Shown here in pieces: positions 13,940-63,896 of a DNA stretch of 64,000 nt. How positions within the stretch are numbered: the stretch's first letter is position 1; every line of letters starts with the position of its first letter. The notes below the pieces were generated by a model that made no database searches, was not told where the DNA came from, and saw only the letters and a list, made by a program, of their open reading frames with translations. The stretch is from Halocatena salina (GTDB lineage Archaea > Halobacteriota > Halobacteria > Halobacteriales > Haloarculaceae), in the NCBI RefSeq assembly GCF_023115355.1, contig NZ_CP096019.1:1674001-1738000 (forward strand), in the 5' to 3' direction. The translations under genes were made by a program, and so were the position numbers.

Positions 13940-14181
13940 TGAACCACCTTGTTGTGTTCGGGCGAGCGAAGCTCACCACTCTGGCAACAAATCTGCCGCG
14001 CGGGAACAAAGGTCTTGCTGGCTTGCCTTCGCTTCGTTCGCGCGGAGTAACCTCGCATTACTACACTGCTCAAAATGATGGATAAAAATGATCCTGCAAT
14101 ATCATCAGTATTGCCTCGAACAGCGCCATCGCCGAGAGCACTGTGCTGGGTATCGAGCAGTTACGAGTTGTTTGTCTAACA
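13940..14181. other. Intergenic region, possible degenerate left end of module A
   Basis: The first part begins AACCACCTTG at about 13943 and continues with a GAGCGAAGCTC hairpin near 13965-13975. The latter resembles the hairpin unit in the tails of modules A and B. The distance from here to the module's right end at 15249 (about 1.3 kb) is close to the length of module B (1.34 kb). The match is weak, and the rest of the gap shows no gene. Confidence 0.3.
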
Positions 14182-14213
14182 CAACATTACTCGTTGCATC
14201 AGTACCTTTATGT
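14182..14213 (+). promoter_or_regulatory. Conserved promoter block of RNA module A (TATA-like TTTATG)
   Basis: The block from ACATTACT to CAGTACCTTTAT is nearly identical to 61864-61896 in module B, whereas sequence further upstream is not. The TTTATG box at 14207-14212 lies about 24-27 bp before the start of the conserved RNA stem, the normal archaeal TATA-to-start distance. Inference from position and conservation between two copies. Confidence 0.6.
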
Positions 14214-14233
14214 GTGAAGGGGTAAGGAACGAT

Positions 14234-14400
14234 AAATGAGAACGCCAGCACATCACGGCCGCGCGTTCATGGAAACGCGCCGGGTGTAAGAGGCACCCGA
14301 CGCTGGGGTTCTCGCAAGCACTAGAACCCATGATTGGGAACGAAGCAGAGACATGTAACGGTGTCGAATCGTATCAGAAACGTGACCAGCCACCTTTTTT
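14234..14400 (+). ncRNA. Predicted structured non-coding RNA, copy A
   Basis: An outer stem pairs 14238-14248 (GAGAACGCCAG) with 14303-14313 (CTGGGGTTCTC), with one G-G mismatch, enclosing two hairpins: GCGCGTT/AACGCGC near 14261-14280 and CGGGTG/CACCCG near 14281-14299. Downstream is a CCCA-TGAT-TGGG hairpin, then a stretch identical to copy B and a TTTTTT terminator at 14395-14400. Two blocks, 14272-14313 (42 nt) and 14335-14389 (55 nt), are identical in copy B at 61959-62000 and 62023-62077, more conserved than the flanks. There is no open frame across it. I do not recognise SRP RNA, RNase P RNA, tRNA or a C/D-box RNA. Confidence 0.6.
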
Positions 14401-14541
14401 CCGTTCGGGTGCGCGGAGCGCACCCTCACGCAAAAAATCTGCATTGCAAGAGCTTCGCTCTTGCAGGCTCCCAGATGGATTTCGTCCATCTGAGAGGACC
14501 AAAAAAAGCCGCTCGCTCCGCTTCGCTACGCTCGCGGGAAC
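14395..14541. repeat. Hairpin/terminator repeat array (unit 1)
   Basis: Consecutive perfect hairpins: GGGTGCGC-GGA-GCGCACCC flanked by T6 and A6, then GCAAGAGC-TTC-GCTCTTGC, then CAGATGGA-TTTCG-TCCATCTG, then GGACCAAAAAAAGCCGCTCGC leading into a GC-rich arm. The first and last parts match the repeat at 61604-61690, here interrupted by about 55 bp carrying the two extra hairpins. It likely ends the RNA transcript and may also block read-through in the other direction. Confidence 0.65.
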
Positions 14542-14559
14542 TGCGTTCGTGGGGGGAAG

Positions 14560-15111
14560 ATGACGCTACCGGTGTTTCAGTTCTGGGATCGGCTGGGTGA
14601 GTCGGTGAACCTCTCGACGGTCGAGGATCGAGCGACGATCTCGAAAGCGGAGCTGTACCACGTCGTGGACGTGGGGACAGGAACGTGGTGTCGGCCGTGC
14701 CGGAGTACGGGCTGTGCCCACGCCACGCAGATCGAACAGATTCTAGCAACGGCCGGGCTTGGCCGGTCACAGGTGGCGTACGACGATTTGCCCGGCATTG
14801 CGAATATCACGCGCTACGAGGCGGCAAAGGAGCTGGTCGTCACGGGCTGGTTCGAGAACGGCGGCCGGGTGCGGTATCACGAACAGCGCGACGGGACCGT
14901 CGTCCAGTCGGTGTACACACCTGAAAACGATCGGGAACCAGCCGAGGTGACTGAACAGCCCGACGCAACGAGTGCCCCAGCCGCGTTAGTAGATATGCTG
15001 GCGGAGTACTGCCACTATCGCCAACGCGGTGATCTCGATGGCTTGCGGGCCTGTTACCCCGAGATCGCGCGCATTATAGGCGAGTCGTCGGTCGTCCACG
15101 CCGACGACTGA
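14560..15111 (+). CDS. Unknown 183-residue protein with C-X2-C-X4-C-X-H knuckle (module A, intact)
   Basis: The ATG at 14560 gives 183 residues. The N-terminus MTLPVFQFWDRLGESVNLST is followed by a TWCRPCRSTGCAH knuckle near residues 42-54 that could hold zinc. Then come an alpha/beta stretch with DDLPGIANITRYEAAKELVV and GGRVRYHEQRDGTVVQSVY, a variable acidic linker, and a C-terminal helix pair with EYCHYRQRGDLDGL. No homologous family is recognised. It is the downstream partner of the predicted RNA and is repeated, with a frameshift, at 62249-62798. Differences between the copies concentrate in the linker while the core is kept, which argues that it is a real gene. Possible roles are a regulator or an RNA-binding protein; unproven. 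Confidence 0.65.
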   Translation: MTLPVFQFWDRLGESVNLSTVEDRATISKAELYHVVDVGTGTWCRPCRSTGCAHATQIEQILATAGLGRSQVAYDDLPGIANITRYEAAKELVVTGWFENGGRVRYHEQRDGTVVQSVYTPENDREPAEVTEQPDATSAPAALVDMLAEYCHYRQRGDLDGLRACYPEIARIIGESSVVHADD

Positions 15112-15139
15112 GAACACGGAGGCGGCGGAGCGGGGCAGT

Positions 15140-15249
15140 CGCGGAGCGGGAAGGTCACTTCCCGCGAGCGTTAGCGAGCGGCTTTTTTTGGTCCAGATTT
15201 TTTGCGGGAGTGGTGGCCGAAGGCCACCCGAGCGCAAAAAAGGTGGGTG
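15140..15249. repeat. Hairpin/terminator repeat (unit 2, inverted relative to unit 1)
   Basis: Reads GCGAGCGGCTTTTTTTGGTCC at about 15175-15195, the reverse complement of the end of unit 1, then T6, a hairpin with GGTGGCC-GAA-GGCCACC, A6 and GGTGGGTGTTA. The outer end abuts the tbp stop codon at 15250-15252. It can serve as terminator for tbp (minus strand) and for the unknown gene (plus strand). Confidence 0.65.
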
Positions 15250-61603: not shown

Positions 61604-61755
61604 ACCCACTTTTTTTACGGGAGGGTGCGCAAGGCGCACCCTCCCGTAAAAAACCTGGACTAAAAAAAGCCGCTCGCTGCGCTCGCGGTGACTACACTTG
61701 CATCTCCCGCCTCCGCACCGCTCCGCGACCGCCTCCGCAACGCTCCGCACCGCTT
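61604..61755. repeat. Inverted repeat / bidirectional terminator at left end of module B
   Basis: 61611-61653 is a perfect 20-bp-arm palindrome (T6-ACGGGAGGGTGCGC, loop AAG, mirror arm and A6). It is followed by CCTGGACTAAAAAAAGCC, a GC-rich hairpin and a CCGCTCCGCGACCGCCTCCG stretch. The whole stretch is the reverse complement of 62800-62939 apart from the palindrome loop, which is in the same orientation in both. It follows the phzF stop directly and probably terminates it. Confidence 0.75.
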
Positions 61756-61917: not shown

Positions 61918-62088
61918 AAATGAGAACGCCAGTGCGCCCGTTGGCGTGCGCATTCGTTGAAACGCGCCGGGTGTAAGAGGCACCCGACGCTGGGGTTCTC
62001 AGCGGCAAGAGACACCCATGACTGGGAACGAAGCAGAGACATGTAACGGTGTCGAATCGTATCAGAAACGTGACCAGACACCTATTTT
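61918..62088 (+). ncRNA. Predicted structured non-coding RNA, copy B
   Basis: The outer stem pairs 61922-61932 with 61990-62000 exactly as in copy A. The first inner arm differs in sequence (GTGCGCCCGTTGGCGTGCGC region) but can still pair with the following CGCGCC. The GGGTG-loop-CACCC hairpin and CCCA-TGAC-TGGG hairpin are kept. Blocks 61959-62000 and 62023-62077 are identical to copy A. It ends in CCTATTTT, a weaker T-tract than copy A. No open frame. Confidence 0.6.
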
Positions 62089-62222
62089 CCGCTCGGGTGG
62101 CTGCGCCACCCTCCCGCAAAAAATCTGCATTGCAAGAGCGAAGCTCTTGCAGGCTCCCAGATGGACTTCGTCCATCTGAGAGGACCAAAAAAAGCCGCTC
62201 GCTCCGCTTCGCTACGCTCGCG
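62084..62222. repeat. Hairpin/terminator repeat array in module B (matches unit 1)
   Basis: GGGTGGC-TGC-GCCACCC, A6, GCAAGAGC-GAA-GCTCTTGC, CAGATGGA-CTTCG-TCCATCTG, GGACCAAAAAAAGCCGCTCGC. Compared with 14395-14541 the second hairpin's loop is GAA instead of TTC, meaning the loop is inverted while stem and flanks are not. Confidence 0.65.
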
Positions 62223-62248
62223 GGAACTGCGCTCGTGGGGCAAACGAG

Positions 62249-62798
62249 ATGACGTTGCCGGTATTTCAGTTTTGGGATCGGCTTGGCGAGTCGGTGAACC
62301 TCTCGACCGTGGCGGATCGGGGGAAAATCTCGAAGGCTGAGCTGTACCACGTTGTGGATGTGGAGACAGGAACGTGGTGTCGGCCCTGTCGGAGTACGGG
62401 CTGCGCACGCCACGCAGATCGAGGAGATACTGGCAACGGCCGGGCTTGGCCAGTCACAAATGGAGTACGACGACCTCCCCGGTATTGCGAACGTCACGCG
62501 CTACGACGCGGCAAAGGAGCTGGTCGTCGCTGGCTGGTTCGAGAACGGTGGCCGCGTGCGCTACCACGAACAGCATGACGGCACCATCGTCCAGTCGGTG
62601 TATACACCCAAAAGCGATCGAGAGCCAGCCGAGATGACTGAACAACCGGACGCAACGAGTGCGCCCGCCACGTTCGTCACGACGCTGGCGGCGTACTGTC
62701 ACTATCGCCAGCATGGGGATCTCGATGGCTTGCGCCAGCAGTATCCCGAGGTCGCATGCGTCGTCGGTGAACCGCCAGCTGTCCACGCAGACGACTGA
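62249..62798 (+). pseudogene. Frameshifted copy of the C-X2-C-X4-C-X-H knuckle protein (module B)
   Basis: The ATG at 62249 gives MTLPVFQFWDRLGESVNLST and then WCRPCRSTGCA like copy A. A deletion of 2 nt relative to copy A (TGTGCCCACG there, TGCGCACG here, near 62401-62409) then breaks the frame inside the knuckle. The correct continuation, from HATQIEEILATAGLGQSQME to AVHADD, lies in the +1-shifted frame from about 62410 to 62798. The rest is as well kept as in copy A, so the break is recent, programmed or a sequencing error. Confidence 0.7.
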
Positions 62799-62799
62799 G

Positions 62800-62939
62800 A
62801 ATAACAGAGTCGGCGGAGGCGGTCGCGGAGCGGTGCGGGCAGGTCACTCACCGCGAGCGAAGCTCGCGGCTTTTTTTAGTCCAGGTTTTTTGCGGGAGGG
62901 TGCGCAAGGCGCACCCTCCCGCAAAAAAAGTGGGTGTTG
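62800..62939. repeat. Inverted repeat / bidirectional terminator at right end of module B
   Basis: CCGCGAGC-GAA-GCTCGCGG hairpin near 62852-62870, GGCTTTTTTTAGTCCAGG, then the palindrome 62886-62928 (T6-GCGGGAGGGTGCGC, AAG, mirror arm, A6) and GTGGGTGTT. Reverse complement of 61604-61755. Confidence 0.75.
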
Positions 62940-62984: not shown

Positions 62985-63896
62985 ATGACCCCGCTGTCCC
63001 TCGCTGTCGCCAGTGGCCTTCGACTTCTGGCTGCTAACCAGAACGCGTTGCATTCTGGTGATGTCGTCGGTCAATCTCTAGCGATGGGACCCGGTGTGCT
63101 TCCCGCGGTGAGCGTTGGCGGAGAATACGATCTTCTCGTGTTCCTTTCGATCGGGTTGTTCGGCGGAGCGCACTGTCTCGGCATGTGTGGCCCGCTCGTG
63201 ACGACGTACGCCGAGCGAATGGAGACGGACGACCGATGGGAGGGCGCGCTCACGTCGTATGAAGTCCGCCAACACGCGTTGTTCAATCTCGGGCGGACGG
63301 TTGGATACGCGACGCTGGGTTTCGTGTTCGGATTGCTCGGCGCGCTGTTGTACGAAACCGTCAGCCTCGCGGGCGTGATCACCCCCGTACAGGGCGGTGT
63401 CGGCGTCCTCGTCGGTGGCATGATCATCGTCATGGGGGCGACACGGCTGGGGGGCTACCGGCAAGGTTCTGTCGAAGCGGTCGTTTCGAAAGCCGGTGTC
63501 GGTTCGCTGTTCGCCCGGAGTTACACGCTCATCTCCACCCGGATCGATCGATGGGTAAACGGCGTCGGTATCGTCGGTCTCGGTGCGCTTCACGGGCTGT
63601 TACCGTGTATGCTGCTGTATCCTGCTTTCCTGTACGCCTTCGCGCAGGGATCACCGGTGTACGGCGCGCTCGCACTCGGTGCGCTCGGTCTCGGCACTGT
63701 CCCCACCGTGTTCCTCTATGGCACACTCATTCAATCAGTGAGCTCCCGGCAGCGACAGGTCGTTCACCGAGGTCTCGGGGTGCTGTTCGTGGCGCTGGGC
63801 TACGTGTTACTCACGATGGGATTCATGCGTTTTGGCATCGAACTCCCGATGCCTGATATCCCGTTCTATCAACCACTCGATCAGATGATGCACTGA
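62985..63896 (+). CDS. UreH/TauE-SafE-like membrane protein linked to copper ATPase
   Basis: 303 residues from the ATG at 62985. The pattern LSIGLFGGAHCLGMCGPLVT is the hallmark of the cytochrome-oxidase/urease-associated sulfite-exporter-like (UreH, DsbD_2-like) family, with a Cys-Met-Cys core that may bind copper. About six spans follow, including GLGALHGLLPCMLLYPAFLY. The next gene, 8 bp downstream, begins a metal P-type ATPase, so the pair likely handles copper for a terminal oxidase. Confidence 0.85.
   Translation: MTPLSLAVASGLRLLAANQNALHSGDVVGQSLAMGPGVLPAVSVGGEYDLLVFLSIGLFGGAHCLGMCGPLVTTYAERMETDDRWEGALTSYEVRQHALFNLGRTVGYATLGFVFGLLGALLYETVSLAGVITPVQGGVGVLVGGMIIVMGATRLGGYRQGSVEAVVSKAGVGSLFARSYTLISTRIDRWVNGVGIVGLGALHGLLPCMLLYPAFLYAFAQGSPVYGALALGALGLGTVPTVFLYGTLIQSVSSRQRQVVHRGLGVLFVALGYVLLTMGFMRFGIELPMPDIPFYQPLDQMMH

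What the first reader, a model, noticed from the sequence alone, without database searches (positions are those of the whole stretch)
14182..15249. Duplicated RNA-protein module (copy A 14.18-15.25 kb, copy B 61.60-62.94 kb) of unknown function
Two loci 47 kb apart share the same order: conserved promoter-like block, predicted structured RNA of about 165 nt, hairpin array, then a gene for a roughly 183-residue C-X2-C-X4-C-X-H protein, then an inverted terminator repeat. RNA stretches of 42 and 55 nt are identical between copies, while sequence outside is not. I recognise neither partner. Linked RNA and protein kept together in two places suggests a functional pair (regulatory RNA and RNA-binding protein, a toxin-antitoxin-like pair, or cargo of a small mobile element).
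Basis: partly seen in the sequence, partly recalled or inferred. Interest (0 to 1): 0.82.

Follow-up and report, generated by a model that had tools for sequence, protein, structure and literature searches.

The report
New haloarchaeal leader RNA for zinc-protein operons
The two repeats are members of a large, previously uncatalogued family of folded RNAs that sit at the front of messages for small zinc-binding proteins in salt-loving archaea and look built to switch their translation on and off; in this genome the whole cassette is repeated about 15 times.

Summary
The repeat is real and much larger than reported. The window genome (genus Halocatena) holds 15 copies of the RNA, each next to a copy of the protein gene. 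In window copies A and B a hairpin array replaces the end of ORF1, and ORF2 of copy B is frameshifted. The leader fold (P1 closing P2 and P3) is supported by strong compensatory changes. A covariance model found it in 106 of 392 Halobacteriales genomes (41 of 95 genera), with no Rfam match at the gathering cut-offs. Elsewhere ORF1/ORF2 are unrelated, but the order holds: RNA, AUG, small ORF1, ATGA overlap, small Cys-rich protein (39 of 44 loci downstream, 0 of 44 upstream on the same strand). The 3' strand of P1 can also pair with the segment before the AUG, an expression-platform layout. Best reading: a new cis-acting leader, probably a translational switch, for small zinc-protein operons, dispersed as cassettes that also invert in place. 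Ligand, expression and binding are untested.

The parts
13948..14060 (+). copy A: degenerate left end repeat (weak match to the left arm of copy B)
   Evidence: read by eye from the sequence; not recovered as an inverted repeat by the repeat finder
14182..14237 (+). copy A: promoter region with TATA-like CTTTATGT about 30 nt upstream of the leader
   Evidence: similar block upstream of the leader in the genome copies
14238..14313 (+). copy A: structured leader RNA (P1, P2, P3)
   Evidence: covariance-model hit G000:C1:1688238-1688313; fold z -5.07; pair counts
14281..14299 (+). copy A: P3 hairpin CGGGTG-TAAGAGG-CACCCG; variable loop 14287-14293
14303..14329 (+). copy A: alternative hairpin, P1 3' strand (GGGTTCTC) with pre-AUG GAACCC
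14330..14563 (+). copy A: ORF1 (77-aa frame; original Zn-finger end replaced by array sequence; stop overlaps ORF2 start)
14390..14556 (+). copy A: hairpin array inside ORF1
   Evidence: absent from intact copies L034, L035, L041
14560..15111 (+). copy A: ORF2, 183 aa, C-X2-C-X4-C-X-H
15112..15249 (+). copy A: right end repeat, ends next to the TBP gene stop (15250)
61604..61691 (+). copy B: left terminal inverted repeat
   Evidence: I1
61922..62000 (+). copy B: structured leader RNA
   Evidence: loop identical to copy A
62018..62179 (+). copy B: ORF1 remnant
62081..62245 (+). copy B: hairpin array
62249..62798 (+). copy B: ORF2 pseudogene, frameshift near 62405
62848..62935 (+). copy B: right terminal inverted repeat
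   Evidence: I1

Best explanation
The RNA is a cis-acting 5' leader. P1 closes a multi-branch domain with P2 and P3; the 3' strand of P1 can instead pair with the segment just before the first AUG. The two states are exclusive, so whatever stabilises the P1-closed domain (an ion or metabolite, or the encoded zinc protein acting as autoregulator) would change access to that AUG. ORF2 start overlaps ORF1 stop (ATGA), so both proteins would be controlled together. Shown here: fold, position, coupling, alternative complementarity, distribution. Inferred: transcription, switching, trigger, direction of control. In Halocatena the operon has spread as a cassette, later homogenised and inverted in place.
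For: Fold: 95.5% of cells paired over 58 sequences, 18 of 24 pairs with changes on both sides, 0/500 shuffles; slid controls 34-47% (that alignment is fitted to the model; the independent MAFFT alignment A3 gives 97.7% and 6 pairs). Same-strand linkage: Zn-motif ORF downstream 39/44, upstream same strand 0/44, antisense downstream 4/44. Coupling: ATGA/GTGA overlaps in most parsed loci of both groups. Alternative helix partners change together: GGCTTCC/GGAAGCC, GGTTTC/GAAACC, GGTCTTC/GAAGACC, GGTGTTC/GAACACC, GCTGTTTC/GAAACAGC; observed mean stem 5.71 vs 5.25 sd 0.11 permuted, 0/300. TATA-like box about 30 nt upstream of P1. Hits only in Halobacteriales in a 295-genome phylum sample.
Against: No expression, probing or binding data. 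The permutation effect for the alternative helix is modest, and in the CDRCGD-type Natrialbaceae group the pre-AUG complement is shorter or needs G-U pairs. The P3 stem is nearly invariant, which also fits a DNA operator. Some RNA copies (G238: L266, L268) have no Cys-rich ORF2. ORF1 of Natrialbaceae may be conserved partly as an RNA hairpin (GAGATATAAACGTCTC) rather than as protein.
Confidence: 0.62

Rival explanations
1. The cassette is primarily a mobile element: the RNA and the two zinc proteins serve its own movement (as guide or end-recognition RNA plus partners), and the terminal repeats are its ends.
For: Up to 41 dispersed matches per genome; empty phzF-dsbD site in G001/G003 against occupied in G000/G004/G005; terminal inverted repeats in copy B; in-place inversion at four of six G000/G005 loci with both flanks matched, and hybrid flanks at others.
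Against: No recombinase, nuclease or transposase similarity; subfamily-1 copies in G001/G003 lack the terminal repeats; most loci are orthologous between species, so movement is rare; the RNA occurs before unrelated proteins; no target duplication established.
Confidence: 0.2
2. The RNA is a trans-acting sRNA whose variable 6-7 nt P3 loop is a seed giving each copy its own target.
For: 122 distinct loops among 152; loop lengths almost only 6 or 7; invariant stem; biased composition.
Against: No matching or complementary sequence near the own copy. Loop mismatch (about 46%) is only moderately above four-fold silent sites (17-47%), so relaxed constraint may suffice.
Confidence: 0.06
3. Toxin-antitoxin-like pair (RNA antitoxin, protein toxin).
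For: Multi-copy small genes beside a structured RNA.
Against: The RNA is in sense orientation at the 5' end of the message; downstream proteins are unrelated between clades; copy B persists with broken ORF2.
Confidence: 0.05
4. The invariant CGGGTG-N7-CACCCG is a DNA operator or recombination core; the RNA fold is secondary.
For: P3 stem nearly invariant over 58 sequences; weak sign of loop flipping (reverse-complement match 8/56 against 6.3% expected, p 0.024, pairs not independent).
Against: P1 and P2 covary as RNA; the two P3 exceptions at the second pair are compensated A-U pairs; few sites outside leaders.
Confidence: 0.07

Closest known systems
Translational riboswitches and protein-autoregulated leaders
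   Same: closed aptamer-like domain with a P1 whose 3' strand is shared with an alternative helix at the start codon; same-strand 5' leader
   Different: no Rfam match at gathering cut-offs and only far-below-cut-off hits in the relaxed scan; ligand unknown; per PMC8241225 only the fluoride riboswitch was experimentally shown in archaea at that date
C(P)XCG zinc-finger micro-proteins of haloarchaea (PMC11241148, PMC6562870)
   Same: ORF2 in Natrialbaceae is a small (about 50-110 aa) protein with two C-X1-2-C motifs
   Different: the passages read of PMC11241148 mention no operon or leader RNA; Halocatena ORF2 is larger with C-X2-C-X4-C-X-H
HEARO/IscB omega RNAs and IS110 bridge RNAs (from memory)
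   Same: structured RNA upstream of an ORF in dispersed repeats
   Different: no nuclease or recombinase recognised; the RNA precedes unrelated proteins
SWIM zinc finger proteins
   Same: one relative (G272, L243) has the RNA before a SWIM protein with a C-terminal C-X2-C..H-X3-C-P finger like ORF1
   Different: ORF2 to SWIM-protein profile comparison not significant

Membership tests
Known Rfam family | match at gathering score | tested here: not met
Riboswitch | conserved structured domain in a 5' leader | tested here: met
   structure and position upstream of a coding gene: (transcription itself not shown)
Riboswitch | exclusive alternative structure at the expression platform | tested here: inconclusive
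   complementarity and joint changes seen, switching not shown
Riboswitch | direct ligand binding changing expression | not testable with these tools
   needs probing and reporter experiments
Transposon | encoded, recognisable transposase or recombinase | tested here: not met
   Pfam, NCBIfam, PHROGs without significant hits for the Halocatena ORFs
Transposon | empty site in a relative | tested here: met
   phzF-dsbD in G001/G003
Transposon | target site duplication | not tested
   flanks too diverged at the one empty site found
SWIM zinc finger (for ORF2) | significant profile match | tested here: not met
Toxin-antitoxin (type I/III) | toxic product neutralised by the RNA | not testable with these tools
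   needs expression experiments

The most novel reading that the evidence does not exclude
This is a native, widespread haloarchaeal riboswitch class, plausibly sensing zinc or another metal or metabolite and gating translation of coupled zinc-protein operons.
Probability: 0.2. Interest if true: 0.9.

Novelty: new variant of a known kind. Interest (0 to 1): 0.74.

Why it matters
Structured regulatory leaders are barely documented in haloarchaea, where many messages are leaderless (PMC8241225). A leader found in about a quarter of the sampled Halobacteriales genomes, often in a dozen or more copies per genome, before otherwise orphan small zinc proteins would give those proteins a shared regulatory logic and a directly testable switch.

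Tried and rejected
Directed diversification of the P3 loop: attractive when leaders about 98% identical had different loops, but silent sites of the same copies differ by 17-47%, so the claim was dropped to 'unconstrained or fast'. Gene conversion as source of new loops: only 2 loops are shared within a genome. Loop pairing with own transcript or flanks: no signal. Virus carriage: 16 pattern hits in viral contigs, none a convincing leader by model. Structure-based function for ORF2: AlphaFold pLDDT 69, no PDB match at E below 0.001. ORF2 as SWIM: not significant. Rfam near-hit CRISPR-DR29 (18.8 bits, cut-off 39) taken as chance. Literature searches for an earlier description of such a leader found none in the library held.

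Full report
WHAT IS THERE. The genome holding the window belongs to Halocatena by kinship (groups G000 with same-genus genomes whose sequences names as H. pleomorpha, Actinarchaeum halophilum YIM 93972, YIM A00010 and A00013; one search gives the genus). The RNA block has 15 copies and the protein 15 copies (copy B being split by its frameshift), one to one and all on contig C1, plus one decayed protein copy. Other species of the genus have 1 to 41 protein matches; 52 genomes outside the genus have none.

ANATOMY. ORF1 begins at the AUG after CCC and in intact copies encodes a protein of about 48 aa with C-X2-C...H-X3-C-P, its stop overlapping the ORF2 start as ATGA. A second subfamily in G001/G003 has the same plan with a GTG start. 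Copies A and B belong to a branch in which a hairpin array replaces the end of ORF1; copy A regains an ATGA overlap by reading through the array, copy B has a frameshift in ORF2. Copy B lies between 88-nt inverted repeats, 91% complementary.

THE RNA. Copies fold as P1 (6+5 bp), P2 (7 bp) and P3 (6 bp). On an independent MAFFT alignment of 43 Halocatena-genus leaders 97.7% of cells pair and six pairs change on both sides, 0/500 shuffles. Model R1 found the copies and also weaker hits, some of them before other Cys-rich ORFs in the genus. In the order it hit 64 of 392 genomes; the rebuilt model R2 hit 106 of 392, 41 of 95 genera, many Natrialbaceae reaching the 12-per-genome scoring cap. The cross-clade alignment has 18 of 24 pairs changed on both sides. 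In a 295-genome phylum sample the only hits were Halobacteriales. Named Natrialbaceae plasmids carry it, without annotation under the match. Rfam has no match at its cut-offs.

DOWNSTREAM GENES. Outside Halocatena the RNA is followed by an AUG, a short ORF1 (often M..LLPRxKRLAR), an ATGA overlap and a small ORF2 with CPxCG..PCGC or CDRCGD..C.DC motifs. In 44 loci with enough flank, 39 have such an ORF downstream in sense, none upstream in sense, 4 downstream antisense. One relative has a SWIM protein instead.

HOW IT MAY WORK. The segment before the AUG resembles the P1 5' strand, so the P1 3' strand has two possible partners. Across clades the two change together (GGCTTCC/GGAAGCC, GGTTTC/GAAACC, GGTCTTC/GAAGACC, GGTGTTC/GAACACC, GCTGTTTC/GAAACAGC); against permuted partners the mean stem is 5.71 vs 5.25 sd 0.11. 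This is the layout of a translational switch. The trigger is unknown; autoregulation by the zinc protein or metal sensing are the simplest candidates. That part is inference.

MOBILITY. Between G000 and G005 most sites are orthologous; of six loci with both flanks matched to one locus, four carry the cassette inverted and two in the same orientation; others have hybrid flanks, marking rearrangements at the copies. The phzF-dsbD site of copy B is empty in G001/G003 and occupied in three species. In G001/G003 conserved sequence of subfamily 1 stops near the promoter and the ORF2 stop without terminal repeats, so the repeats are not required parts of the operon.

THE P3 LOOP. The stem CGGGTG/CACCCG is nearly invariant while the 6-7 nt loop is near saturation even between leaders about 98% identical. 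Silent sites in the same copies differ by 17-47%, so this is at most a few-fold faster than silent change and does not prove a diversification mechanism. No pairing partner was found.

LIMITS. All evidence is comparative. E-values of R1/R2 are rough, hits per genome were capped, loci used for the downstream-ORF count were high-scoring hits, and sequences are related, so counts are not independent.

Noticed in passing
window 62999-63062; also inside ORF2 of L080, L090, L104, L069, L073, L107, L109, L111: A dispersed two-hairpin repeat of about 52 nt (TCGCC-hairpin-GGCTGCTAACC-hairpin-GGTGATGTC) occurs in five Halocatena genomes (26 exact pattern hits in G005) and interrupts several ORF2 copies at the same codon.
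   Followed up: partly
G000:C1 223662, 262543, 903177, 1271249 (L184-L187): A second leader type in the same genome, with the same P3 hairpin, precedes an 82-aa Cys-containing protein (MDPNDTDVEKSIGCDQN...).
   Followed up: partly
L227-L270 (Natrialbaceae and others): A hairpin GAGA-TATAAACG-TCTC with apparent compensatory changes lies in the first codons of ORF1; it could be RNA structure or a promoter-like palindrome.
   Followed up: no
G000:C1 inter-copy flanks: Cassette copies sit at breakpoints of chromosome rearrangements between Halocatena species (hybrid flanks L031/L034/L098/L102, L039/L043/L109).
   Followed up: partly
L046, G000:C1:2207070-2207609: A decayed ORF2 copy (43% identity, five stops) without a detected leader.
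   Followed up: no
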